In this document: positions 2,150 to 62,592 of the stretch, one piece after another
How positions within the stretch are numbered: position 1 is the stretch's first letter
Layout: every line of letters starts with the position of its first letter
Origin: a virus
Reading direction: 5' to 3' (one strand)
Virus record (IMG/VR): IMGVR_UViG_3300042330_000854
Location: 1 to 64,000 of that record
Length of the DNA stretch: 64,000 bases
Made by a program: the position numbers and the translations under genes
The notes under the pieces: model-generated
Databases searched by the model: none
What the model saw: only the letters and a program-made list of their open reading frames with translations
What the model was told of the DNA's origin: nothing

Positions 2150-2485
2150 TTAATTTTGTAAAAACCATAAAACTCTTTCAGTTTCACTTAACCCAATTGC
2201 GTCAAAATATAAATCTGGATTTGGATGGTCTTTTAGCCATTGAGAAACATTATTATAATAATAAACATTATTTAAATAAAACCCACCTATTTTGTATTTG
2301 TTAATTCTAGCTGGCCCAATTAAACGATGATCAATTTGCCCTTTTAAACACCATCTTTTTTCACCAGTAGATAAATTTTCAAAAGCTGGTGTTTGTTCAT
2401 CTGGTGAAGAAATATGGTTCCAAGGAATTCTATTTTTATTATCGGTTGTGAATTTTTGCCCATCAATATAATATAAATATTTCAT
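2150..2485 (-). CDS. HRLTGPA-family protein (C-terminal type P)
   Basis: 111 residues, the first of 14 genes in the window with the same architecture: a tyrosine-rich start (YLYYIDGQKFTTDN), an acidic SSPDEQTPAFE block, a tryptophan-rich centre ending in HRLIGPARI (usually HRLTGPA), a short FYLN..YY strand, WLKDHPNPD, and one of two C-terminal ends. This copy has the long end, NPDLYFDAIGLSETER then VLWFLQN. The GPA core resembles MORN-like repeats of phage proteins. No enzymatic residues are evident; I infer a small beta-rich binding domain. No function is known to me. Confidence 0.85.
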   Translation of the reverse strand: MKYLYYIDGQKFTTDNKNRIPWNHISSPDEQTPAFENLSTGEKRWCLKGQIDHRLIGPARINKYKIGGFYLNNVYYYNNVSQWLKDHPNPDLYFDAIGLSETERVLWFLQN

Positions 2486-12075: not shown

Positions 12076-12098
12076 TTAAGGGAGAATTTCTCCCTTAA
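12076..12098. terminator. hairpin terminator, GGGAGA stem
   Basis: TTAAGGGAGA pairs with TCTCCCTTAA; the stem overlaps the last codons of the TROVE/vWA gene. Confidence 0.7.
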
Positions 12099-13477
12099 TA
12101 ATCATACCGATCTTGCACAATAGTTTTTAACATAACTTTTTCAGGAGATAAATCACCACCAAGTAAGGATTTTAAAATTGTTGGACTAAAACCAGAAACC
12201 AATGCAGTTCCACTACTATGAATGGTAACAGGAACATTACCAACACGACCACTTAAATTCCAAAATACAATTTGTGGTAATTTATAACCAGATTGAGCAT
12301 ATTTTTCTTTAACCATTTCATACATGGATAAATCTTTTGAATCTTCTGAACAAGCATCAAATTCCATATCGGAAAGAATAAGAATTTTTGTTGGCATTTG
12401 ATCTTCTTTGACCGAAGATTTTTTAGCAGAATTAAGAACAAGGTCAAATACTTTTTGAATATTAGTATTATAACCCCAATCAGATTTACTCATTGATTGA
12501 TAACGTTGTGATAAATCTCCAACTAATTTTACAAAATTTGGACGTTCACTAAAAGTAATAAATTGGTCTTTAAAAACACCAACATTGCGTTCTGAAATAT
12601 AAAGCCCAAGTGAAATAGCGGCATCCATTGCTGTAACTTGCCCAGAAATTGGTTGATCCATGCTTCCACTTACATCAACTACGGGAAGAATACGTTCATT
12701 TGAACCTTCCATATAATTTGGTAATGCGTTCCATTGTGCAACGCTTACAACTTTATCGCCATTATTCAATGAACGAATAACATCATAAGGATAAACAGCA
12801 CCAGCATTAACTTTAGCTTCACCTTTGGTTAAAGCAGTTTTATAGCTTTCATAACGATCAGCATCATGCTTTTTAAAGGCTTTCTGATAACGACCAGCAG
12901 CAACCGAAGGAACATGGTTGTATTCAATTTTATCCCATTCTTTAGCACACATTTGTTGTTCAACGGTTGCAGAAAGATTAACCAATAATTTACGATAATC
13001 TTTTGGAGTTAAACGAAGATAAGCACGAAGTTTATTTGCATCATCGCCTTTTCGTGGTGCCCATTTAGCTGCCAAGCCATTTTTATCGCGCAAAGAATTT
13101 GCGTAAAGCTTTAAAGCATTGCGTTCAATTTCAGTATTGAATGCAACAAAAATATCATCAAATCTTCCCAATTCAGGAAGACGATTTAAAACTTTAACAG
13201 CTAATTCTTTGTTTTGTTCAACAAGAACTTTAAAAAGTTTACGGAAAGTTTCGCGTTCACCAGCACCATTGCGAACATCGCGTGCCCAAAGCAAATTACG
13301 AATTGCTAAATCTTGATTTTCAGCTAATGCTTGGATAAATAACGCGGAAATATCTTTCTTACGACTTGCGCCGATTTGAAAAAATAAATCAACATTGTTG
13401 TTTAATGATGAAAAATTTGTAACAGCACCATTTTCAGTTAATGCAGTTGTATTGATCGCTTGAAATAAAGAAGTCAT
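12095..13477 (-). CDS. TROVE/vWA (DUF2828-like) RNA-binding protein
   Basis: 460 residues. The N-terminal half is a helical repeat region like the TROVE/DUF2828 module (NLLWARDVRNGAGERETFRK, GRFDDIFVAF). The C-terminal half is a von Willebrand A domain with the MIDAS motif DVSGSMD at about residue 268 and later TKILILSDMEFD. In Ro60-type proteins this combination holds misfolded or Y-type RNAs in a ring and the vWA domain binds a metal. Base composition is less AT-biased than its neighbours, which suggests later acquisition. A role with the phage's odd tRNAs is possible but unproven. Confidence 0.85.
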   Translation of the reverse strand: MTSLFQAINTTALTENGAVTNFSSLNNNVDLFFQIGASRKKDISALFIQALAENQDLAIRNLLWARDVRNGAGERETFRKLFKVLVEQNKELAVKVLNRLPELGRFDDIFVAFNTEIERNALKLYANSLRDKNGLAAKWAPRKGDDANKLRAYLRLTPKDYRKLLVNLSATVEQQMCAKEWDKIEYNHVPSVAAGRYQKAFKKHDADRYESYKTALTKGEAKVNAGAVYPYDVIRSLNNGDKVVSVAQWNALPNYMEGSNERILPVVDVSGSMDQPISGQVTAMDAAISLGLYISERNVGVFKDQFITFSERPNFVKLVGDLSQRYQSMSKSDWGYNTNIQKVFDLVLNSAKKSSVKEDQMPTKILILSDMEFDACSEDSKDLSMYEMVKEKYAQSGYKLPQIVFWNLSGRVGNVPVTIHSSGTALVSGFSPTILKSLLGGDLSPEKVMLKTIVQDRYDY

Positions 13478-16554: not shown

Positions 16555-16857
16555 TTAACTCCATTTTAAAAGCATTTCAACTTGGAAGGTATTATCTTGA
16601 TTTGGATGTTCTTTAAACCAATCATTTATATTTGCATATTTTTTATCATTTAAACAAAACCATTTATCATCTGTAAAAATTATTGCGGGTCCAGTTAAGC
16701 GATGCCATTTTCTTTCTTTTTTCATCCAAATTTTATTTCCTGTACCTAAATTTTCAAAAGCAGGAATATCATCATTTGGTGATGAAATAATAGCGTAAGG
16801 AATATCTCGATAATTATCAGTTATATATTTTTTACCATCAATATAATAAACAAACAT
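16555..16857 (-). CDS. HRLTGPA-family protein (C-terminal type Q)
   Basis: 100 residues. Core KWHRLTGPAIIF; short end HPNQDNTFQVEMLLKWS. Shares one nucleotide with the upstream nuclease gene, so it is co-translated with it. Confidence 0.85.
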   Translation of the reverse strand: MFVYYIDGKKYITDNYRDIPYAIISSPNDDIPAFENLGTGNKIWMKKERKWHRLTGPAIIFTDDKWFCLNDKKYANINDWFKEHPNQDNTFQVEMLLKWS

Positions 16858-17912: not shown

Positions 17913-17938
17913 AAAGAGGAAAATTAATTTTCCTCTTT
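17913..17938. terminator. bidirectional hairpin terminator
   Basis: AAAGAGGAAAATT pairs perfectly with AATTTTCCTCTTT, and the first bases of the downstream arm include the stop of 17937. Confidence 0.8.
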
Positions 17939-18242
17939 ATGTGTATTTTAAAAGCATTTCTACTTGGAAGGCATTTGTTTGATTTGGATGGTCTTTCAAC
18001 CAATCATGAATGTTGTCATATTCTTTATCGTTTAACCAAAAACGATAAAATTCATCATTATCAATATAAGCTGGTCCCATTAATCTATGCCAAATAAAAC
18101 CTTTTTCACACCAAACTTTTTCTTTTTCTGCTTGATTTTCTAAAGCAGGTGTTTCTTCATCAGGTGAAGAAAAATCATCCCAAGGAATATCGTCATAATT
18201 CTCAGTTGTAAATTTTTGACCATCGATGTAATAAATATACAT
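17937..18242 (-). CDS. HRLTGPA-family protein (type Q)
   Basis: 101 residues. Core IWHRLMGPAYI (Met in place of Thr); end HPNQTNAFQVEMLLKYT. Isolated between two terminator hairpins, so it is a monocistronic cassette. Confidence 0.85.
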   Translation of the reverse strand: MYIYYIDGQKFTTENYDDIPWDDFSSPDEETPALENQAEKEKVWCEKGFIWHRLMGPAYIDNDEFYRFWLNDKEYDNIHDWLKDHPNQTNAFQVEMLLKYT

Positions 18243-20480: not shown

Positions 20481-22253
20481 ATGTTCAATTGGTTTAAAAA
20501 GCGTTTACTTTATTGGTTATTAGATGTTAAACAAATAAAAATAGGAGAATTATTTGAAAGCTCTAATCCACAATCACAAAAAACATATAATGAAGAAAAC
20601 CTTCTTTTTATTAATGAAGGTAAAACTGATTATTGGATAATAACACCCAATGGTCCAGAAAGAATAAAAAGAACTTTAAAAACAATTCCATTAAAAATTA
20701 TAGAATTAAAAACTGAAAATAATTCAATACGTTGTTCGGAAGATCATTTGCTTAAAATAGATAATATTTTTAAAAAAGCAAAAGAATATAAAATTAATGA
20801 TAAAATTACAACAATCAATGGTAATGAAAAAATAATTTCAATAAAACATTATGGTTATGATAATTGTTATGATTTAGAAATTGATAGTAAAGAACACGAA
20901 TATTATTCTGATAATTTTATTTCTCATAATTCTACTTGCATGGTTAGTTACATTCTTTGGTATAGTCAATTTCATAGAAATAAAACTATTTTAATTTCAG
21001 GTAATAAATTTTCTGCTGCCATTGAAAATATGGATCGTATTAGAGATAGTTATGAAGCATTGGATATGTGGATTAAACGAGGAGTTACTGAATACAACAA
21101 AGCAACAATAAGATTTGATAATGGTACAAAAATAATTGCATCAGCTACCACACCCAATGCTGGTCGTGGTCGCTCAGTTAATTTATTATTTTTAGATGAG
21201 TTGGCGTTCGTTAATGAGCGGTTTGCTCGTGAATATTGGAGTGCTATTCAACCAACATTAGGACAAACCAAAGGTAAATGTATTATTGCAAGTACGCCAA
21301 GAGCCGATACTGATCTTTTTTATGAACTTTGGGAAGGCGCAAATGATCTTTTTGATGAAAATGGCGAACCAAACCCAAGAGGTATTGGAAGAAATGGGTT
21401 TAAGCCACTTTTTTATCCTTGGTATGTTCATCCAGAACGCGGGCCTGAATGGGAAAAAGAATGGCGGGCTAAATTAGGCAAAAATTTCTTAGCAGAAATG
21501 GAATGTTTATTCGTATCAGATGAAGAAACTTTAGTTGATTCTATGGTTTTAAAAGATATAAAACCAAAAAATCCATTATTTGATATGGGCACAAGTCGTT
21601 GGTGGAAAGAACCTGAACCTAATAAAGTTTATATTTGTTCGTTAGACCCTTGTGTCGGAACTGGTAGAGATTATTCTGTAATTCAAATTTTTTCATTAAA
21701 TCCCTTTGAACAAATTGCAGAATGGAGAAATAATACTACTGATTTAAAAGGTCAATGTAGAATGTTGATTAATATGATGGGATATATTTGGGATAATTTA
21801 ATTGAAAACCCAAATCAAAGAGGTGATCCTGAATTATATTGGACCTTTGAAAATAATTCTATTGGTACTGCAATTGTTGAAGTGGTAAAAGATAATGGAG
21901 AAGAAGCATTTCCTGGTCAATTAATAAATGTAACATCAAGTGGTTCAGTAAAATATGGCTATTTTACGGGAAAACATAATAAATTAAAAAATTGTATTAA
22001 AATGAAATCATTGATTGAAACTAAAAAAATGACAATTAATAGCAGTTATTTATTAAATGAATTGAAAAATTATTTATCATCTGGTGGAAGTTATGCTGCT
22101 AAACCCGGTTATCATGATGATGCTGTAAGTGCTGTATTATTAATTATTGGGATATTAAATAAAGTTATGAATTGGAGTGAACAGGAAATTGAAGATTTAA
22201 AAGAAACCTTAGATGATAATTATGAAGAGGATGTTCCTGCTGTAATATTTTAA
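20481..22253 (+). CDS. terL: large terminase, C-terminal part, fused to the C-terminal part of an intein
   Basis: 590 residues. Residues 1-150 are intein-like: IKIGELFE, block-B-like RCSEDHLLK (84-92), block F around NCYDLEID and block G ending FISHN150, followed by Ser151 as the first extein residue. The extein then reads STCMVSYILW, the sequence that follows Walker A (GK) in TerL. Walker B LLFLDE is at 235-240, coupling motif ASTPR near 270, and the nuclease acids D389 (SLDP), E457 (TFEN) and D546/D547 (YHDD). The N-extein and intein residue Cys1 are absent; the product starts MFNWFKKRLL. So this is half of a fractured TerL needing trans-splicing with an N-half encoded elsewhere. TerL pumps DNA into the prohead and cuts it. 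Confidence 0.9.
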   Translation: MFNWFKKRLLYWLLDVKQIKIGELFESSNPQSQKTYNEENLLFINEGKTDYWIITPNGPERIKRTLKTIPLKIIELKTENNSIRCSEDHLLKIDNIFKKAKEYKINDKITTINGNEKIISIKHYGYDNCYDLEIDSKEHEYYSDNFISHNSTCMVSYILWYSQFHRNKTILISGNKFSAAIENMDRIRDSYEALDMWIKRGVTEYNKATIRFDNGTKIIASATTPNAGRGRSVNLLFLDELAFVNERFAREYWSAIQPTLGQTKGKCIIASTPRADTDLFYELWEGANDLFDENGEPNPRGIGRNGFKPLFYPWYVHPERGPEWEKEWRAKLGKNFLAEMECLFVSDEETLVDSMVLKDIKPKNPLFDMGTSRWWKEPEPNKVYICSLDPCVGTGRDYSVIQIFSLNPFEQIAEWRNNTTDLKGQCRMLINMMGYIWDNLIENPNQRGDPELYWTFENNSIGTAIVEVVKDNGEEAFPGQLINVTSSGSVKYGYFTGKHNKLKNCIKMKSLIETKKMTINSSYLLNELKNYLSSGGSYAAKPGYHDDAVSAVLLIIGILNKVMNWSEQEIEDLKETLDDNYEEDVPAVIF

Positions 22254-23137: not shown

Positions 23138-23479
23138 TTAATTTTGTAAAAACCATAACACTTTATCGGTTTCTGTAAAAACTCCAATTATTTGAAAATA
23201 AAGATCGGAATTTGGATGATCGTTAATCCAATCCCTGACGCTTTTATAATAGTTTTCGTTTAGATAAAAATCTTTTACATTGTTTGCGTTAGGCCAAATA
23301 ACTGCTGGTCCAGTTAATCTATGCCTTATTCTTCCTTTTAAGCACCATTCTTTATAACCATCAGATAAATCTTCAAGCGCAGGTGTTTCTTCATTGAAAG
23401 AAGAAATTTCATCCCAAGGAACATTCCTAATAAGATTGGTGATAAATTTTTCACCATCAACATAATAAACATAACTCAT
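23138..23479 (-). CDS. HRLTGPA-family protein (type P)
   Basis: 113 residues, core IRHRLTGPAVIW, end FTETDKVLWFLQN. Overlaps the upstream membrane gene by 4 nt. Confidence 0.85.
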   Translation of the reverse strand: MSYVYYVDGEKFITNLIRNVPWDEISSFNEETPALEDLSDGYKEWCLKGRIRHRLTGPAVIWPNANNVKDFYLNENYYKSVRDWINDHPNSDLYFQIIGVFTETDKVLWFLQN

Positions 23480-28547: not shown

Positions 28548-29114
28548 ATGATTGAAGAATTAGAAAATATCTTAAAAAACAATCTTTATTTTTTAAGAGG
28601 ATCAAGAATTTATCAAACCAATCATGAAAACTCTGATTGGGATTTTTGTGTTATTGGAGATTTAAACGATAATCAAAAAATTAAAATAAACTCTTTGCTA
28701 AATTGTAATTTTGAATTTTTTACCAAAGAAGAATTTCAAAATGAAATTTACAATCATGAAATTTCAGCACTAGAATGCTTATGGACAAAAGAAAACAATT
28801 TTCTTTTCAATCTTGATTTAAAAATTTTGAGAAAATCAATCGCCCAAAAAGCAAGCAATTCTTATGTTAAAGCAAAAAAGAAACTAATCGATAATGAAAT
28901 CGAAATAGCACAAAAATCTCTTTTTCATAGCTTTCGTATTTTAGATTTTGGAACGCAAATTGCAACTAATGGTAAAATACAAAATTATTCTTCTATGAAT
29001 TTTATCTTAAATGAAATTAAAAATTTAGAACCAAATTGGAATTTATGGGAAGAAAAATTTAAAAAATTACATAATCAATTTCATAGTGAATTTAAAACAA
29101 AGGCGCCAAAATGA
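28548..29114 (+). CDS. nucleotidyltransferase-fold protein
   Basis: 188 residues from the ATG at 28548 (AGGAG 7 nt upstream; the ATG at 28542 is too close). LRGSRIYQTNHENSDWDFCV is the GS...DxD signature of the Pol-beta/MNT nucleotidyltransferase fold, with a helical C-terminus. Such proteins transfer NMPs to nucleic acids, proteins or small molecules. Given the tRNA-rich genome, tRNA end addition is possible, but the protein is much shorter than CCA-adding enzymes. Confidence 0.75.
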   Translation: MIEELENILKNNLYFLRGSRIYQTNHENSDWDFCVIGDLNDNQKIKINSLLNCNFEFFTKEEFQNEIYNHEISALECLWTKENNFLFNLDLKILRKSIAQKASNSYVKAKKKLIDNEIEIAQKSLFHSFRILDFGTQIATNGKIQNYSSMNFILNEIKNLEPNWNLWEEKFKKLHNQFHSEFKTKAPK

Positions 29115-29488
29115 ATAAATTTATACAAAAAATAAAATCAATTTTTATTAGACAAAAAAAGTATGTTTATTTTATTGATGGTAAAAAATTTACAACTAAC
29201 AATTATGATGATATTCCATTATATGATATTTCGTCACCAGACGAAAATACACCCGCTTATGAAAATTTATCAAATGGATTTAAAGTTTGGTGTAAAAAAG
29301 GTTTTTTTCGGCAACGATTAACCGGGCCTGCTATTATTTGGTCTCATGGAAGAGAAGAATTTTATTTAAATGATAGCTATTATGAAAATATTCATGCTTG
29401 GTTAAAAGATCATCCAAATCCCGATCTTTATTTTGATGCTTTAGGAATGACGGAAACCGATAAAATTCTTTGGTTTTTACAAAATTAG
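29111..29488 (+). CDS. HRLTGPA-family protein (type P) with basic N-terminal extension
   Basis: 125 residues. Residues 1-17 (MNKFIQKIKSIFIRQKK) form a basic amphipathic helix like that of 25249. Core RQRLTGPAII; end MTETDKILWFLQN. Starts 4 nt inside the nucleotidyltransferase gene. 29489-29603 is a C/A-patterned non-coding spacer. Confidence 0.83.
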   Translation: MNKFIQKIKSIFIRQKKYVYFIDGKKFTTNNYDDIPLYDISSPDENTPAYENLSNGFKVWCKKGFFRQRLTGPAIIWSHGREEFYLNDSYYENIHAWLKDHPNPDLYFDALGMTETDKILWFLQN

Positions 29489-29603: not shown

Positions 29604-29915
29604 ATGAAATATATTTATTATGTTGATGGTGAAAAATTTACTTCTGATAATTTAGATGAAATTCCTCATTATGATATATCCTCACCAAATGAAAATACGC
29701 CTGGTTTTGAGAACTTAGAAATAGGTAGAAAAATTTGGTGTAAAAAGAAATGGATTATTCATAGATTATCAGGACCAGCTATTATCGATAAAGATGGTAA
29801 TGAAAGATTTTATCTAAATGGAGAATTTTATATTGATAATGTTATTCTTTGGCTTAAACATCATCCAAATCAAGACAATACCTTTCAGATTGAAATGTTG
29901 TTAAAATACACATAA
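29604..29915 (+). CDS. HRLTGPA-family protein (type Q)
   Basis: 103 residues, core IIHRLSGPAII, end HPNQDNTFQIEMLLKYT. Lies 115 bp after 29111, so the two C-terminal types occur side by side. Confidence 0.85.
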   Translation: MKYIYYVDGEKFTSDNLDEIPHYDISSPNENTPGFENLEIGRKIWCKKKWIIHRLSGPAIIDKDGNERFYLNGEFYIDNVILWLKHHPNQDNTFQIEMLLKYT

Positions 29916-31073: not shown

Positions 31074-31151
31074 CTTTTAATAAATTAAAGAAAATAATCT
31101 ATTTTGTTAAATACTAAACAGTTATTTTTCTAATTTTTAACAAAATAGATG

Positions 31152-31180
31152 TTGACAACAAAAACAAGATAAAGTATCGT
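31152..31180 (+). promoter_or_regulatory. sigma70-type promoter before interrupted tRNA-Leu
   Basis: TTGACA, 17 bp ending AAGATAAAG, TATCGT. The same AAGATAAAGTA context recurs at 31615 before another tRNA-like gene. Confidence 0.6.
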
Positions 31181-31197
31181 AAGAATATAACAAATAT

Positions 31198-31341
31198 GCG
31201 GGCATGGGGGAACTTGGCAGACCCGACGTTCTCATTTCCAAGAAATAGGCAAGTATTATTTTAATACTTTCAGTGCAATTCTGATAGGAAAAACAAAAAA
31301 CGTTTCCAATAGGAGTGCGAGTTCAAGTCTCGCTGCCCGTA
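31198..31341 (+). tRNA. interrupted tRNA-Leu (inferred anticodon CAA) with 61-nt insert
   Basis: Acceptor GCGGGCA/TGCCCGT, D-arm GGGG..CCC with GG in the loop, long variable arm TTCCAATAGGA, T-arm GCGAG-TTCAAGT-CTCGC. Anticodon stem ACGTT (31226-31230) pairs with AACGT (31299-31303), but 68 nt lie between. If an insert 31233-31293 is removed after U33 the loop becomes CTCAAAA, anticodon CAA, which fits the class II variable arm. The insert folds as TTTCC/GGAAA enclosing hairpins AAGTATTA/TAATACTT and TCAG-TGCAATT-CTGA. It is far too small for a group I intron. The same insert type is in 35451. Confidence 0.75.
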
Positions 31342-32930: not shown

Positions 32931-33001
32931 GCGGGATTAGCATAAAATTAATGTGCTTGGCTTCCACCCAAGATAAATCGGAGAGTTACCGATATTCCGC
33001 T
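32931..33001 (+). tRNA. tRNA-Gly (TCC) with T-loop AGAGTTA
   Basis: Acceptor GCGGGAT/ATTCCGC, D-stem GCA/TGC around TAAAATTAATG, anticodon stem CTTGG/CCAAG with loop CTTCCAC, T-arm ATCGG-AGAGTTA-CCGAT. The D-loop has no GG and the T-loop no TTC. Related T-loops (AGCGTTA) occur in tRNA-His and a CAT tRNA. Potential substrate of the GlyRS-like protein at 40866. Confidence 0.8.
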
Positions 33002-33062
33002 CTTTAAAATAATAGTTGGTTTGATGATTTATCCTAATTTAAAATCATCGTTTATTTGGTGT

Positions 33063-33941: not shown

Positions 33942-34015
33942 TGCGGAGTAGAGAAAAAGACATCTCGCAGGCTTCATGCGCCTGAAATAGTTGGAGCGTT
34001 ACCAACCTCTCGCAT
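33942..34015 (+). tRNA. tRNA with CAT anticodon (Met or Ile2), T-loop AGCGTTA
   Basis: D-arm GAGA-AAAAGACA-TCTC, anticodon stem CAGGC/GCCTG with loop TTCATGC, T-arm GTTGG-AGCGTTA-CCAAC. The acceptor TGCGGAG pairs with the 3' strand only if one T is bulged. The T-loop is identical to that of tRNA-His at 40042, and both D-loops contain AAAAG and no GG. Confidence 0.72.
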
Positions 34016-34021
34016 CTTTAA

Positions 34022-34155: not shown

Positions 34156-34230
34156 ATCCTTGTGGTGTAGAAGTTAACATGTCAGTCTCCAAAACTGAAG
34201 TCCAGATTGCAAAATTCTGCAAGGATGCCA
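34156..34230 (+). tRNA. tRNA-Trp (CCA) with T-loop TGCAAAA
   Basis: Acceptor ATCCTTG/CAAGGAT, D-stem GTG/CAT around TAGAAGTTAA, anticodon stem TCAGT/ACTGA with loop CTCCAAA, T-arm CAGAT/TTCTG around TGCAAAA, discriminator G, CCA encoded. D-loop and T-loop are both of the type seen in tRNA-Pro at 36223. Confidence 0.82.
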
Positions 34231-34964: not shown

Positions 34965-35038
34965 GCCGTTTAAGCTAACTTTAGTAGAAGCGCTTGCATG
35001 AAGAGCAAGAGGACTTGGCGCGAAACCAAGAAGCGGCA
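34965..35038 (+). tRNA. tRNA-Phe (GAA) with T-loop CGCGAAA
   Basis: Acceptor GCCGTTT/AAGCGGC, D-stem GCT/AGC around AACTTTAGTAGA, anticodon stem CTTGC/GCAAG with loop ATGAAGA, T-arm CTTGG-CGCGAAA-CCAAG. 74 nt. Another D-loop without GG combined with a T-loop without TTC. Confidence 0.75.
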
Positions 35039-35450: not shown

Positions 35451-35592
35451 GCTCACGTATCCCAATCGGAAGAGGAAAACGACTCAATCCTGAGAAAAAG
35501 ACAAGTATTATTTAATACTTTCGGTGCAATTCCGATAAGGAAAAAAACAGAAAATCGTTTAGTTGTCGGTTCGAATCCGACCGTGAGTACCA
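35451..35592 (+). tRNA. interrupted tRNA (inferred Phe, GAA) with 65-nt insert and encoded CCA
   Basis: Acceptor GCTCACG/CGTGAGT, short D-arm TCC..GGA, T-arm GTCGG-TTCGAAT-CCGAC, discriminator A and CCA. Anticodon stem AACGA pairs with TCGTT across 72 nt. Removing 35485-35549 after U33 gives loop CTGAAAA (Phe). The insert repeats the architecture of 31198: (A)TCCT/AGGA, AAGTATTA/TAATACTT, and TCGG-TGCAATT-CCGA where the other copy has TCAG/CTGA, a compensatory change. If the cut is one or two bases later the anticodon would be CAA instead. Confidence 0.72.
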
Positions 35593-35604
35593 TTAGAGGA
35601 AAAA

Positions 35605-36087
35605 ATGACAAATAATAATGAAAAAACAATAGTTTCATCAAAAGTTTATAAAGATAAAAAATCTAAAAGATTAATACAACATATAAGATATTCAGATGGA
35701 ACAAGAAAAACACGTTCTTATCCAAGAACAATTATGGAAGAATATTTAGGAAGACCATTATTAGACGACGAAACAGTAGATCATATTGATGGTAATGTAG
35801 AAAATAATGATATTAGTAATTTACAATTATTGTCACGAGAAGAAAATGCCCGTAAAGGCGCTTTGGGAAATAAACATACATTAGGTCGTAAACAATCTGA
35901 AGAACATAAACGAAATGGTGCTAAAAACGGCCAAGCAAAATTAACAAATGAACAAGTAATTTATTATAGAAAATCTTATGAAGATAAATCTCTTACTAAA
36001 AATCAAATAATAGAATTAACAAACATGAGTAGGCCCGCTATTGAAAATATTTTAAATTACAAATCATATGTAAATACTAAAAACTAA
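35605..36087 (+). CDS. HNH homing endonuclease
   Basis: 160 residues. EETVDHIDG-type core here is DETVDHIDGNVENNDISNLQ then LLSREENARKG, the classical HNH with His-Ile-Asp, Asn and His/Asn positions. The C-terminal helix-turn-helix (TKNQIIELTNMSRPAIENIL) probably recognises the target site. It starts 13 nt after the CCA of the interrupted tRNA, typical of a free-standing homing gene exploiting a conserved tRNA. 36088-36222 downstream has hairpins but no gene. Confidence 0.88.
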   Translation: MTNNNEKTIVSSKVYKDKKSKRLIQHIRYSDGTRKTRSYPRTIMEEYLGRPLLDDETVDHIDGNVENNDISNLQLLSREENARKGALGNKHTLGRKQSEEHKRNGAKNGQAKLTNEQVIYYRKSYEDKSLTKNQIIELTNMSRPAIENILNYKSYVNTKN

Positions 36088-36222: not shown

Positions 36223-36296
36223 TCGGGGTATAGCTCAGAAGTAGAGTGTTCGCTTTGGAAGCGAAAGGCCGAAATTGCAAAATTTTCTACCCCGAC
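36223..36296 (+). tRNA. tRNA-Pro (TGG) with T-loop TGCAAAA
   Basis: Acceptor TCGGGGT/ACCCCGA, D-arm GCTC-AGAAGTA-GAGT, anticodon stem TTCGC/GCGAA with loop TTTGGAA, T-arm GAAAT/TTTTC around TGCAAAA. D-loop AGAAGTA and T-loop TGCAAAA form the same combination as tRNA-Trp at 34156. Confidence 0.82.
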
Positions 36297-40041: not shown

Positions 40042-40114
40042 GGTAGTTGTGGCAGAAAAGTTATGCGACAGATTGTGAGTCTGTAATAAGCGAGAGCGTT
40101 ACTCGTCAACTACC
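40042..40114 (+). tRNA. tRNA-His (GTG) with T-loop AGCGTTA
   Basis: G(-1) faces C73; acceptor GTAGTTG/CAACTAC, D-stem GCA/TGC around GAAAAGTTA, anticodon stem ACAGA/TCTGT with loop TTGTGAG, T-arm GCGAG-AGCGTTA-CTCGT. The extra G(-1), the hallmark of tRNA-His, argues that the gene is functional despite its missing GG and TTC. Confidence 0.85.
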
Positions 40115-40137
40115 CGAAATTTATTGGGGATTTATCA

Positions 40138-40613: not shown

Positions 40614-40853
40614 ATGTTAAGTGATATTAAATTTTCACATCAATTAGAACAAAGTTTACATTTTATTGTTGAAAATTTAGAAGATAAATCTTCAAATAAT
40701 ATTATGATAAATTTTAATATTTTCTTTAAATTGTTAATTAATTGTAAAGATGTAAAAAATGTGTATTTGAATTTTATTGATAATATTTTTGTTATAAATT
40801 ATACATATAATAAACAAAATTTTTGTATTAACTTTTTCTATAAAACAACTTAA
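40614..40853 (+). CDS. hypothetical protein
   Basis: 79 residues with strand-rich end (NVYLNFIDNIFVINYTYNK). No clear ribosome site; translation may be coupled to the previous gene 6 nt away. Confidence 0.6.
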   Translation: MLSDIKFSHQLEQSLHFIVENLEDKSSNNIMINFNIFFKLLINCKDVKNVYLNFIDNIFVINYTYNKQNFCINFFYKTT

Positions 40854-40865
40854 AAAGGAAATAAA

Positions 40866-41600
40866 ATGAGTTTAGCTTTATTTGATACAGAGGGGTTGCG
40901 TTTTCGACGCCAAACTGAATTACGATTACGTGAACAAATTAAAAATGAATTAGTAGAAAATATTCAACAAATTTTATTAGATATGAATCAAATGTGGCGT
41001 TTTGAAGAAGTTGAAACGCCATTAATTATGCCTAAAGAATTAATGAATGCAAGTTATGATCTTGATGATATTTTTGTTTTACAAAATAAAATAGCCAATA
41101 AAGATTATGCTTTACGTGCAGAAACAACATTAGGTTCTTATTTAATGGCTGTTGAATTACTTAAAACAACTTCAATTCGTGCTCCTTTGTGTGTTTATAC
41201 ACATGGGCCAAGTTTTCGAGTTGAAAATTCAGATGGGGCAACTGCTGCTAAATTACGGTTTAATCAATTTTATCAATTGGAATTTCAATTAATTTATGGT
41301 GCTGATACCAAAGCGCCGATTATTGAAACAATGATTGAAAAATTACCTACGGTAGTAAATAAAATTCTTAATAAATCTGTTAGAACAATTGAAAGTGATC
41401 GTTTGCCTTCTTATTCGATAGAAACAATTGATATTGAAGTTGAATGGTATTCTGAAACAGCAAAAAAGATGGAATTTAAAGAAATTGCCAGTATGAGTTT
41501 ACGCAAAGATTTTCCTTTAATTCCAGGCCATAAACCGTATCGTGTTTTTGAAATTGCTTTTGGAACTGATCGATTATTGGCTATGAAAAATGGCATTTGA
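40866..41600 (+). CDS. class II aminoacyl-tRNA synthetase core, GlyRS-like
   Basis: 244 residues. YALRAETTLGSY (residues 81-92) matches the LRPETAQG block of GlyRS. Class II motif 2 is FRVE (117-120) with RFNQFYQLEFQLIYG, and motif 3 is FEIAFGTDRLLAM near the C-terminus. The anticodon-binding domain is absent. It could aminoacylate a minimal or unusual tRNA, act on another amino-acid acceptor, or make dinucleotides. Its neighbours are tRNA-His and the RNase P-like RNA, and the phage tRNA-Gly is atypical. Confidence 0.8.
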   Translation: MSLALFDTEGLRFRRQTELRLREQIKNELVENIQQILLDMNQMWRFEEVETPLIMPKELMNASYDLDDIFVLQNKIANKDYALRAETTLGSYLMAVELLKTTSIRAPLCVYTHGPSFRVENSDGATAAKLRFNQFYQLEFQLIYGADTKAPIIETMIEKLPTVVNKILNKSVRTIESDRLPSYSIETIDIEVEWYSETAKKMEFKEIASMSLRKDFPLIPGHKPYRVFEIAFGTDRLLAMKNGI

Positions 41601-41880
41601 TTTACATGAATTGAATCAATTAAAATTTGATTTAAAAAATCTAAATGTAAATATTAAAATATGTTCTCCTGATAATAAATTGGGAGAACATTTTATTGAT
41701 TTTTATATTGATGATAAAAGAATTTTAACTATTGTTTATAAATTAAAATTTGGTTTCGGATTTTTTAGTGAAGATGCAATAATGTTTGAAGGCCCAAGTG
41801 AAATTTTAAATTATGAAAATGCATTAATAAAAATTCGAGAATTTTTAGCTGATAAAAATTTGTTAAATAAATCTACATAG
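41590..41880 (+). CDS. hypothetical protein
   Basis: 96 residues; begins 11 nt inside the synthetase gene. Strands plus a C-terminal helix (YENALIKIREFLADK). Possibly a partner of the synthetase-like protein because of coupling. Confidence 0.68.
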   Translation: MAFDLHELNQLKFDLKNLNVNIKICSPDNKLGEHFIDFYIDDKRILTIVYKLKFGFGFFSEDAIMFEGPSEILNYENALIKIREFLADKNLLNKST

Positions 41881-41883
41881 TTT

Positions 41884-42350
41884 CAGAGTTAGAAAAAGGG
41901 AATCGCTCTTCCCAAAAACATTTTCAGAATACAGGACTGAGGAAATGAGTTAGAAACAAACGAACGGTTACGATTAACCGGAATAGAAAAAATTCTATTC
42001 ACTAATCCGTCTATCGAGTAGAATTGGTAGGCGAAAAGATTCTAGCAATGTTTGTTCATTAACAACTAGAAGTTATCATAATTTTAATACATGAGAATTA
42101 TGATAATCCCGTTTTGAGAAATTTAAAATCAATTTCTGAAGATTTATCACGAGTAGGTACAGCAAAACCGCCTGCGCTTTATTTTATAATGTAGTGAGTC
42201 ATGTATGAAATTTACGCCGATGCTTTTATACGTAAGGTGCAAAATTTGATCTTCCCTATGTCATTATTATTTTATTAGTTTTGGCATGGGGAAGAATGAA
42301 ATATGTCCTCAGCAATTGCCGTATGGGCTTTAGAAATAAAGAAAAAAATC
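41884..42350 (+). ncRNA. large structured RNA resembling bacterial RNase P RNA
   Basis: About 470 nt with no open frame. Long-range CTGAGGA (41937) pairs with TCCTCAG (42306). Local hairpins: GGGAA/TTCCC, CGGTTA/TAACCG, GAATAGAA/TTCTATTC, TTATCATAATT/AATTATGATAA, TCTTCCC/GGGGAAGA. Sequence blocks in RNase P order: GAGGAAATGAG (CR I-like), ACAGCAAAACCGCC (like ACAG..GCAAACCGCC), ACGTAAGG, AGAATGAAATATGTCC (like AGATGAATGACTGTCC). RNase P trims tRNA 5' ends. The canonical P4 helix is not convincing by eye, so the identity is provisional. Confidence 0.5.
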
Positions 42351-42832: not shown

Positions 42833-42907
42833 TCACGCATTCGAATAATCAGTTAATTCAACAGACTTTCAATCTGTAAACGAGAGGGCAGAACTCTCAT
42901 GCGTGAC
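42833..42907 (+). tRNA. tRNA-Glu (TTC) with T-loop GGCAGAA
   Basis: Acceptor TCACGCA/TGCGTGA, D-arm GAAT-AATCAGTTA-ATTC, anticodon stem ACAGA/TCTGT with loop CTTTCAA, T-arm GAGAG-GGCAGAA-CTCTC. D-loop and T-loop match the pattern of tRNA-Met at 32331 although all stems differ. Confidence 0.83.
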
Positions 42908-50247: not shown

Positions 50248-50956
50248 ATTTTATTGCCTTATTTAATTTTTCCATCATTGTTTCATCAAATTTAAATGAA
50301 CAAATAATATAGCGTTTATTTGGTTCTGGCGCATCTGTCATTTGGATATGAGAAAAATCACTTAAATTTAATTTTTCTGTTTCAACAATATACTTAAATT
50401 CAGACTCTTGAATAAACATATAATCAGCACGCCCAAGTAAAATTTGTTTTACTCTTGCAGTGTTTTCTTCAGTTGATTCAACCATTTTTGTATTATTTGT
50501 TTTTAATAAATTATCCAAATAATTACCATAAGATAATTCTACTTTACGAGCAAATCGCAAATTTTCATCTTTTGTTAAATCAGCAAAAGTTTTATGTGCT
50601 TTTATTTTTTCATTTGAGTTACTCAATAACACCCCAATTGGGTTATCAGTTAAAACAGGTTCGGAAAACTTACCAATTTTTTCACGCTCTGCACGTTTAA
50701 AATAATTCAATGCACAAACTGGTTCGACATTTTCTTCTAAAGCAATTAATTGGCGAGCTAATGGTAATTCTACAAATACAGGTTTAAATCCAGCTTTAAT
50801 AAAAGCATCAGAAGATGCTTGACCAACCGAACCTGTAATTCCTGTTTCAGTTTTCATAATTAATGGCGCACGTTGAGAATAAACAACTTTTATTTCTTGT
50901 GCAAACACGGGAAAAGCAAATAATAAAGTAAGTAAAAATGTGGTTAATAATTTCAT
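50246..50956 (-). CDS. exported periplasmic solute-binding protein (family 3-like)
   Basis: 236 residues from ATG 50956 behind AAGGA. Sec signal peptide MKLLTTFLLTLLFAFPVFAQ, then EIKVVYSQRAPLIMKTETGI, PIGVLLSNS and FADLTKDENLRFARKVE, the fold pattern of SBP_bac_3/PheC-like binding proteins. Such proteins capture small molecules in the periplasm of Gram-negative bacteria. Rare in phages: it could scavenge a nutrient, or bind a signal. It stands alone, facing a terminator. Confidence 0.8.
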   Translation of the reverse strand: MKLLTTFLLTLLFAFPVFAQEIKVVYSQRAPLIMKTETGITGSVGQASSDAFIKAGFKPVFVELPLARQLIALEENVEPVCALNYFKRAEREKIGKFSEPVLTDNPIGVLLSNSNEKIKAHKTFADLTKDENLRFARKVELSYGNYLDNLLKTNNTKMVESTEENTARVKQILLGRADYMFIQESEFKYIVETEKLNLSDFSHIQMTDAPEPNKRYIICSFKFDETMMEKLNKAIK

Positions 50957-51003
50957 GTTTTTGTTCCTTAAAAAAGTATTTATCAATTTTAGAAAGAGTT
51001 AAA

Positions 51004-51339
51004 ATGAGATTTATTTATTATATTGATGGTGAAAAATTTACAACTAACAATTATGATGAAGTTCCGATTTATGAAATTTCATTTTTAGATGAAAATACAC
51101 CTGCTTTAGAGGATTTAAAAACTGGTCATAAACGTTGGTGTTTTAAAGGAAGAATTTTACATCGATTAACTGGTCCTGCACATATTGCAGATAATGGAGT
51201 AGAAGATTTTTGGTTAAATGGAATTTATTACCGAAGAATAAAAGAATGGATTAAGGTTCATCCAAATCCTGATCTTTATTTTGATGCAATCGGGATAAAA
51301 ACAGAAACCGATAAAGTTATTTGGTACTTACAAAATTAA
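51004..51339 (+). CDS. HRLTGPA-family protein (type P)
   Basis: 111 residues from ATG 51004 behind AGAAAGAG. Core LHRLTGPAHI, end KTETDKVIWYLQN. Divergent from the solute-binding protein. Confidence 0.85.
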   Translation: MRFIYYIDGEKFTTNNYDEVPIYEISFLDENTPALEDLKTGHKRWCFKGRILHRLTGPAHIADNGVEDFWLNGIYYRRIKEWIKVHPNPDLYFDAIGIKTETDKVIWYLQN

Positions 51340-57651: not shown

Positions 57652-57981
57652 ATGACATACGTTTACTATGTTGATGGTGAAAAATTTACAACCGATAATT
57701 ATGATGATATTCCTTGGGATGATATTTCTTCACCCAATGAAAATACACCAGCGTTTGAAGATTTATCAACAGGTGAAAAAATTTGGTGTGAAAAAGGGTA
57801 TCGTTGGCATCGATTAACTGGACCGGCGTACTTTGATAATGATAGATTTTGTTTTTGGCTAAATGATAAAGAATATGAAAATATTGAAGAATGGATAAAA
57901 GATCATCCAAATCCCGATCTATACTTTGATGTATTAGGTTTAAATGAAACCGAAAGAGTTTTGTGGTTTTTACAAAATTAA
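57652..57981 (+). CDS. HRLTGPA-family protein (type P)
   Basis: 109 residues; the most consensus-like copy: FTTDNYDDIPWDDISSPNE, WHRLTGPAYF, LNETERVLWFLQN. ATG behind GAGAGG. Divergent from the primase gene. Confidence 0.87.
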   Translation: MTYVYYVDGEKFTTDNYDDIPWDDISSPNENTPAFEDLSTGEKIWCEKGYRWHRLTGPAYFDNDRFCFWLNDKEYENIEEWIKDHPNPDLYFDVLGLNETERVLWFLQN

Positions 57982-60547: not shown

Positions 60548-60853
60548 TTAGCTGTATTTTAAAAGCATTTCAACTTGGAATGTATTGTCTTGATTAGGGT
60601 GGTCTTTTAACCAAGAATGAATATTATTAAAATAATACCCAGATAACCAAAATTGTACTCTGTCGTCAGTATAAATAACCGCTGGGCCAGTTAATCGATG
60701 ATAAATTCTTCCTTTTTTACACCAAAATTTAAATCTTGATTCTTTTTCATAAGCAGGTGTACTTTCATCAGGTGATGATATTTGATAAATAATAATTTCA
60801 CTGGGATAATTTGTTGTAAATTTTTCACCATCAATATAATAAATATATTTCAT
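60548..60853 (-). CDS. HRLTGPA-family protein (type Q)
   Basis: 101 residues. Core IYHRLTGPAVIY; end HPNQDNTFQVEMLLKYS. Overlaps the upstream gene by 4 nt. Confidence 0.85.
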   Translation of the reverse strand: MKYIYYIDGEKFTTNYPSEIIIYQISSPDESTPAYEKESRFKFWCKKGRIYHRLTGPAVIYTDDRVQFWLSGYYFNNIHSWLKDHPNQDNTFQVEMLLKYS

Positions 60854-62283: not shown

Positions 62284-62592
62284 TTAACTATATTTTAATA
62301 ACATTTCTACTTGAAAAGCATTATCTTGATTTGGATGTTCTTCTAACCAATCCTTAACATTATTATATCTTTTATTGTTTAAATCAAAATATTCTATTCC
62401 GTCACCCGCAATAACTGCTGGTCCCGTTAATCGATGACAACGCCAACCTTTTAAACACCAAAATTTAAACCCATTTGATAAATTTTCATAAGCAGGCGTA
62501 CTTTCATCTGGGGAAGAAATATCATCTAAAGGAATTTCATAATAATTATCGGTTGTATATTTTTCATCATCAACGTAATAAATAAAATTCAT
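62284..62592 (-). CDS. HRLTGPA-family protein (type Q)
   Basis: 102 residues. Core RCHRLTGPAVIA; end HPNQDNAFQVEMLLKYS. Starts 4 nt inside the upstream gene. Confidence 0.85.
   Translation of the reverse strand: MNFIYYVDDEKYTTDNYYEIPLDDISSPDESTPAYENLSNGFKFWCLKGWRCHRLTGPAVIAGDGIEYFDLNNKRYNNVKDWLEEHPNQDNAFQVEMLLKYS

What the first reader, a model, noticed from the sequence alone, without database searches (positions are those of the whole stretch)
40866..41600. GlyRS-like class II synthetase core without an anticodon domain
All three class II motifs are recognisable, yet the protein stops after motif 3. It lies between tRNA-His and the RNase P-like RNA, and the phage's tRNA-Gly has altered D/T loops. 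It might charge non-standard tRNAs or make non-translational aminoacyl or adenylyl products.
Basis: partly seen in the sequence, partly recalled or inferred. Interest (0 to 1): 0.65.

Follow-up and report, generated by a model that had tools for sequence, protein, structure and literature searches.

The report
Stripped-down glycine-type tRNA-charging enzyme in phages
The phage gene encodes only the catalytic core of a glycine-type tRNA-charging enzyme, and it belongs to a conserved family, not described in the papers I could search, found in many giant phages and on Rhizobium chromosomes; in one phage group it sits beside a well-kept stop-codon-reading tRNA, which hints at a natural enzyme-tRNA pair.

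Summary
ORF 40866-41600(+) encodes a 244-aa class II synthetase core with motifs 1, 2 and 3 and nothing after motif 3. It is not a truncated gene: 19 phage records, 79 IMG/VR loci and 61 of 120 sampled Rhizobium genomes carry the same stand-alone core. Nearest kin are alpha2 glycyl-tRNA synthetases (GlyRS): PDB profile 7.5e-17, 55/55 members hit the GlyRS HMM, the AlphaFold model (pLDDT 94) finds GlyRS first, and the tree places the family as sister to GlyRS, not inside it. The four positions I recall as the glycine-binding pit are invariant. No anticodon-binding domain is encoded in four complete relatives or the 108-kb record. Best reading: a catalytically competent minimal GlyRS-type enzyme that charges tRNA acceptor ends without reading the anticodon. 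In one clade (9 loci) it lies near a CUA-anticodon tRNA with compensatory changes and invariant G73; other CUA tRNAs examined have A73. This resembles PylRS/tRNA-Pyl, but the linkage lies within conserved synteny, no in-frame TAG was found in conserved genes, and the window's record shows no CUA tRNA. Substrate and amino acid remain unproven. The neighbouring 'RNase P-like' RNA is structured but unsupported by Rfam.

The parts
40866..41600 (+). Gene of the stand-alone GlyRS-type class II core (244 aa, stop TGA at 41598-41600)
   Evidence: ORF; homologs over the full length; AlphaFold model pLDDT 94.3, pTM 0.91
40852..40859 (+). Shine-Dalgarno-like AAAAAGGA, six bases before the ATG
   Evidence: read from sequence
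40956..41033 (+). Motif 1 (residues 31-56: helix end, strand 45-48, P52), the dimer-interface element of class II enzymes
   Evidence: P52 nearly invariant; helix 16-40 and strand 45-48 in model
41112..41129 (+). L83-R-A-E86-T-T88 loop, equivalent of GlyRS LRPETA
   Evidence: E86 aligns with T. thermophilus GlyRS E188 by profile alignment; invariant in family and GlyRS, Thr in SerRS
41187..41300 (+). Motif 2 (residues 108-145) with R118, E120, R131, F135, Q137, E139, Q141
   Evidence: all invariant; R118 and E139 align with T. thermophilus GlyRS R220 and E239 (residues counted by me)
41394..41408 (+). SDRLP signature (residues 177-181), characteristic of this family compared with GlyRS
   Evidence: P181 invariant, S177-L180 at least 90% in 55 members; R179 not found in the GlyRS or SerRS compared
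41481..41513 (+). E206-x-x-S209-x-S211-x-R213-x-D215-F (residues 206-216), equivalent of GlyRS ELxGIAxRTDF
   Evidence: S209/S211 replace GlyRS G/A and match SerRS S/S
41538..41588 (+). Motif 3 (residues 225-241), E229-I-A231-F-G233-T-D235-R236
   Evidence: E229, G233, R236 invariant; E229 is Glu in GlyRS, Gly/Asn in SerRS, Gly in HisRS
41590..41880 (+). 96-aa ORF overlapping the 3' end by 11 bases, possibly translationally coupled; no Pfam family
40043..40115 (+). tRNA-His(GTG) upstream, T-loop AGCGTTA
   Evidence: ARAGORN
41890..42260 (+).
   Evidence: z-score -4.7 against shuffles; no Rfam RNase P match at E<=5

Best explanation
The gene encodes a catalytically competent, minimal GlyRS-type aminoacyl-tRNA synthetase. 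Like other class II cores it probably dimerises through motif 1, binds ATP through the motif 2 and motif 3 arginines, forms an aminoacyl-adenylate (most likely glycyl, because the recalled glycine-binding pit is intact) and transfers the amino acid to the 3' end of a tRNA. With no anticodon-binding domain it would recognise only the acceptor end (discriminator and first pairs), so it could serve tRNAs whatever their anticodon. In the phage this would add charging capacity or alter the identity of particular phage or host tRNAs during infection. Shown: family, conserved residues, absence of the anticodon domain; the fold is a confident prediction. Inferred: catalysis, glycine, tRNA as acceptor, dimer, role in infection.
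For: Every one of 55 members matches the GlyRS HMM (best 1.2e-17); profile to PDB GlyRS 7.5e-17; top Foldseek hit GlyRS, E 2e-13; family plus GlyRS form a clade, 76/89. E86, R118, E139, E229, G233 and R236 are invariant across strongly diverged members and match GlyRS; SerRS and HisRS differ at E229 and at E86 or E139. The gene tends to lie near tRNA genes: 32 of 68 phage rows have a tRNA within 2 kb (my count), against 10-12% of positions in three test genomes. Four complete phages and the own record have no HGTP anticodon domain anywhere. PylRS is a precedent for charging without anticodon determinants, with G73 and G1-C72 as major identity elements (PMC9976931).
Against: No biochemistry. 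Near the active site T88, S209 and S211 replace GlyRS Ala, Gly, Ala, so the amino acid may not be glycine. No tRNA partner is common to the family: the complete Domovoi and XbC2 genomes show no clear tRNA-Gly by pattern, and 22 bacterial loci have no convincing tRNA beside the gene. Tree support for the GlyRS grouping is moderate and only three other synthetase classes were sampled. Placement among tRNAs may only reflect tRNA-rich translation islands.
Confidence: 0.5

Rival explanations
1. Dedicated amber-tRNA synthetase: at least in the clade of Phosso and L036-L050, the enzyme is the cognate synthetase of the neighbouring CUA-anticodon tRNA, reading G73, and together they insert an amino acid at UAG. 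It works like PylRS/tRNA-Pyl but arose from GlyRS stock.
For: Nine of nine loci with an upstream CTA tRNA in this clade have G73, whereas CTA tRNAs elsewhere in two of these genomes and those near L021 and L080 have A73. The nine tRNAs keep 100% pairing with changes on both sides in all seven acceptor pairs, while the loop CTCTAAA and G73 never vary. It is the only tRNA in each locus. TAG ends only 3-6% of codon-usage-selected genes in three such phages.
Against: The whole neighbourhood, including CysRS, an RNA ligase and a peptidyl-tRNA hydrolase, is syntenic, so the linkage is not specific to the pair, and the nine loci share ancestry. No in-frame TAG was seen in conserved genes. The window's 108-kb record and the Caulobacter, Brevundimonas and XbC2 phages show no CTA tRNA by pattern, nor, as far as the cut listing shows, do bacterial genomes carrying the gene. 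G73 is also an identity element of host tRNAs, so a host enzyme could charge it.
Confidence: 0.2
2. Aminoacyl ligase for a non-tRNA acceptor: the core makes an aminoacyl-adenylate and passes it to a carrier protein, protein or small molecule, as known for SerRS-like amino acid:carrier-protein ligases.
For: No anticodon domain; lone chromosomal gene in half of the sampled Rhizobium genomes without a tRNA beside it; no tRNA partner common to the family.
Against: No carrier protein or recurrent acceptor gene was recognised beside it; nearest relatives are GlyRS, not SerRS; phage copies lean towards tRNA islands.
Confidence: 0.2
3. Catalytically dead paralog used as a binding or regulatory protein, like HisZ or the DNA polymerase gamma accessory subunit.
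For: Small, domain-stripped paralogs of class II enzymes often lose catalysis (general knowledge); weak HisZ HMM hits.
Against: ATP- and amino-acid-site residues are invariant in members only 32-61% identical to the window protein.
Confidence: 0.08

Closest known systems
alpha2 glycyl-tRNA synthetase (NCBIfam PRK04173 / TIGR00389; PDB 8t5n, 1ati, 5z5e)
   Same: Catalytic fold, RPET-type loop, motif 2 FRxE...RxxxFxQxE, Glu before motif 3, recalled glycine-pit residues
   Different: No C-terminal anticodon-binding domain; shorter; 39.6 bits against a cut-off of 312; separate sister clade; T88/S209/S211 replace A/G/A; SDRLP signature
Pyrrolysyl-tRNA synthetase core (PylSc / deltaN PylRS) with tRNA-Pyl
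   Same: Class II core of similar size without a classical anticodon domain; in one clade a neighbouring CUA tRNA with G73
   Different: Sequence is nearer GlyRS; no CUA tRNA found in the window's record; acceptor pair 1-72 is C-G in two of nine tRNAs; no Pyl biosynthesis genes noticed among the annotated neighbours
SerRS-like amino acid:[carrier protein] ligases of rhizobia (from memory)
   Same: Stand-alone class II core lacking a tRNA-binding domain, present in rhizobia
   Different: Those derive from SerRS; this family has Glu at the E86 and E229 positions where SerRS has Thr and Gly/Asn
Synthetases of huge phages (Al-Shayeb 2020, PMC7162821)
   Same: Translation gene in jumbo phages with many tRNAs
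   Different: Those were identified by annotation and TIGRFAM models; this family scores far below those cut-offs, so it would probably be missed

Membership tests
alpha2 GlyRS | Class II motifs 1-3 with catalytic Arg of motifs 2 and 3 | tested here: met
   R118, R236, E120 invariant; P52 nearly so
alpha2 GlyRS | Glycine-pit residues (T. thermophilus E188, R220, E239, E359; numbering and role from memory) | tested here: met
   E86, R118, E139, E229 invariant and equal to nine GlyRS sequences
alpha2 GlyRS | C-terminal anticodon-binding domain (HGTP_anticodon) | tested here: not met
   Protein ends 8 residues after motif 3 Arg; none elsewhere in own record or four complete phages
alpha2 GlyRS | Score above the equivalog cut-off | tested here: not met
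   39.6 bits against 312
alpha2 GlyRS | Nests among GlyRS in a tree | tested here: not met
   Family monophyletic 88/95, GlyRS monophyletic 77/87, sisters 76/89
alpha2 GlyRS | Glycylates tRNA-Gly | not testable with these tools
   Needs a charging assay
PylRS | Closest relative is PylRS | tested here: not met
   PylRS hits at best 1.3e-5 against GlyRS 7.5e-17
PylRS | Cognate CUA tRNA with G73 and G1-C72 beside the gene | tested here: inconclusive
   Present in one clade with G73 9/9 and G1-C72 7/9; absent from the window's record
SerRS or SerRS-like carrier-protein ligase | SerRS active-site residues (Thr at E86, Gly/Asn at E229) | tested here: not met
   Glu at both positions
HisZ-type dead paralog | Loss of catalytic residues | tested here: not met
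   Invariant

The most novel reading that the evidence does not exclude
A GlyRS-derived, anticodon-blind synthetase family of giant phages that in at least one clade forms a natural orthogonal pair with its own amber tRNA (CUA, G73), i.e. a second natural route to UAG suppression with a dedicated synthetase, evolved independently of PylRS and also kept on rhizobial chromosomes.
Probability: 0.18. Interest if true: 0.88.

Novelty: new variant of a known kind. Interest (0 to 1): 0.58.

Why it matters
A single-domain GlyRS-type enzyme conserved in giant phages and in half of the sampled Rhizobium genomes would be a natural test of how little a synthetase needs. If it charges tRNAs regardless of anticodon, it could redirect decoding in infected cells and supply a compact new enzyme for genetic-code engineering, especially if the amber tRNA beside it is its partner.

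Tried and rejected
1) RNase P RNA next door: not supported by Rfam at E<=5. 2) Altered tRNA-Gly as a special partner: altered T-loops occur in six other tRNAs of the window. 3) Global TAG reassignment in phages with the CUA tRNA: my first stop count and tblastn screen was contaminated by antisense ORFs; with codon-usage gene selection TAG remains a rare stop (3-6%), and no conserved gene carries a convincing in-frame TAG (one weak hit in a poor alignment). 4) CUA tRNA as partner of the whole family: not found by pattern in the own record, Caulobacter, Brevundimonas, XbC2 or two 635-kb uncultured phages, nor, as far as the cut listing shows, in bacterial genomes; the CUA tRNAs near L021 and L080 have A73 and look coincidental. 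5) tRNA-Gly as an obligatory partner: pattern search is inconclusive, not universal. 6) Functional context in bacteria: lone gene with variable neighbours. 7) Defence association: no PADLOC hit. 8) Literature: I found no paper describing the family; only open-access papers are held, so this is weak evidence.

Full report
What is there. The ORF at 40866-41600(+) encodes 244 residues, starts at an ATG six bases after AAAAAGGA, and carries the three class II motifs. It ends 8 residues after the motif 3 arginine. The record that holds the window is a 108,076-base virus fragment with one copy of the gene. Single-sequence searches already point to a class II core: Pfam tRNA-synt_2b 7.6e-06, just under its cut-off, and NCBIfam GlyRS 3e-10, 39.6 bits against a cut-off of 312.

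A family, not a fragment. tblastn finds 19 phage records at 36-51% identity, from Caulobacter and Brevundimonas jumbo phages to Sinorhizobium phage Phosso, Xanthomonas phage XbC2 and two 635-kb uncultured phages. A scan of IMG/VR found 86 encoding stretches, 79 loci kept, and GTDB contigs gave 79 loci, mainly Rhizobium, with Devosia, Phenylobacterium, Mesorhizobium and Paraburkholderia. In the genus of one Rhizobium host, 61 of 120 sampled genomes match, nearly all as one intact copy; at least four of the 61 (G132, G138, G077, G142) hold fragments or an internal stop. Most members end just after motif 3, some with short tails. Absence of the anticodon domain is therefore a family trait. No HGTP anticodon domain occurs anywhere in the own record or in the CcrBL9, Domovoi, XbC2 and LR745206 genomes; the hits in Phosso and LR756504 lie elsewhere, in other open frames of 665 and 395 aa.

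What it resembles. The profile of 55 members scores GlyRS best among solved structures (7.5e-17), ahead of SerRS (7.6e-07) and PylRS (1.3e-05). All 55 members hit the GlyRS HMM. The AlphaFold model is confident (mean pLDDT 94.3, pTM 0.91) and Foldseek returns mycobacterial GlyRS first (2e-13), with ProRS, PheRS, SerRS and PylRS close behind, as expected for this fold. I aligned the family with nine GlyRS, eight SerRS and two HisRS sequences taken from bacterial genomes. E86, R118, E139 and E229 are invariant here and in GlyRS. SerRS has Thr and Gly/Asn at the E86 and E229 positions; HisRS has Asp/Asn and Gly at E139 and E229. By the printed alignment to T. thermophilus GlyRS, E86, R118 and E139 fall on residues 188, 220 and 239 (residue counting by me). 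That these residues and E359 bind glycine is from memory. In the tree the family is monophyletic (88/95) and sister to GlyRS (76/89), not nested in it. ProRS, ThrRS and PylRS were not included, so the placement is moderately supported.

How it may work. The conserved ATP and amino-acid sites make adenylate formation likely. Without an anticodon domain, any tRNA recognition should rest on the acceptor end. This is the logic of PylRS, whose major identity elements are G73 and G1-C72 and which ignores the anticodon (PMC9976931). The gene leans towards tRNA surroundings: by my count, 32 of 68 phage rows have a tRNA within 2 kb, against 10-12% of positions in three test genomes. These genomes are not a matched control for all rows.

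The amber tRNA lead. In one clade of the family tree, nine loci have a CUA-anticodon tRNA 49 to 1685 nt upstream of the open frame. The nine tRNAs pair perfectly; all seven acceptor pairs show changes on both sides, while the anticodon loop and G73 never vary. CUA tRNAs elsewhere in two of these phages, and those near L021 and L080, have A73. This would suit an enzyme that reads G73. Against it: the whole neighbourhood is syntenic, including CysRS, RNA ligase, ATP-grasp and peptidyl-tRNA hydrolase; TAG is a rare stop but not reassigned, and no convincing in-frame TAG was found in conserved genes of three phages; the window's record and other complete phages lack such a tRNA by pattern. The nine loci share ancestry, so they are not nine independent events. 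I give this rival 0.2.

The core claim and the refutation test come out in its favour. The RNase P link is not supported: the RNA at 41890-42260 is structured (z -4.7) but matches no Rfam RNase P model. The odd tRNA-Gly loops are part of a wider oddity of the window's tRNAs.

Novelty. I found no description of the family in the papers held. GenBank names vary (hypothetical protein, serine-tRNA synthetase, aminoacyl-tRNA synthetase, RNA synthetase class II), and a Devosia plasmid copy is called aminoacyl--tRNA ligase-related. The survey of huge phages that reported up to 15 synthetases per genome relied on annotation and TIGRFAM models (PMC7162821), which this family would probably fail. I rate it a new variant of a known kind.

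Noticed in passing
window 32931-33002, 33942-34016, 34156-34227, 34965-35038, 36224-36295, 40043-40115, 42834-42906: Seven tRNAs have T-loops other than the TTCRANY type (AGCGTTA, AGAGTTA, CGCGAAA, TTGCAAA, GGCAGAA-type) in one phage; whether they are functional or under another modification regime is unknown.
   Followed up: partly
window about 31110-31260 and 35455-35600: tRNA-like sequences that seem interrupted by insertions of roughly 70-100 nt; an HNH endonuclease ORF lies next to the second (35605-36087).
   Followed up: no
window 41890-42260: Structured RNA (z -4.7) of no known Rfam family between two protein genes; carries GAGGAAA and ACAGCAAAACCGCC stretches reminiscent of RNase P RNA.
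   Followed up: partly
L002, L036, L037, L039, L040, L046, L047, L048, L050: Syntenic translation island in giant phages: RNA ligase, ATP-grasp, CysRS, amber tRNA with G73, class II core, tyrosine-phosphatase-like, peptidyl-tRNA hydrolase, metallophosphatase.
   Followed up: partly
window 2150-2485, 16555-16857, 17937-18242, 23138-23479, 29111-29488, 29604-29915, 50938-51339, 57652-57981, 60548-60853, 62284-62592: At least ten paralogs of a roughly 100-aa protein (YYIDGEKFTT...ISSPDENTPAFE...WCxKG...HRLTGPA) scattered through the window.
   Followed up: no
window 20481-22253: Terminase-like ORF whose first 150 residues look like an intein ending ...FISHN|S (reading by eye).
   Followed up: no
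window 12095-13477: Protein with DUF2828/DUF7788 and a weak von Willebrand-type match, possibly TROVE/Ro60-like, in a tRNA-rich phage.
   Followed up: no
BFVD hits A0A141HRQ2, A0A2I7SAH4, A0A292GIB7, K7QJG2 (no window coordinates): Other phage proteins of 185-217 aa with class II synthetase-like predicted folds, perhaps further stand-alone families.
   Followed up: no
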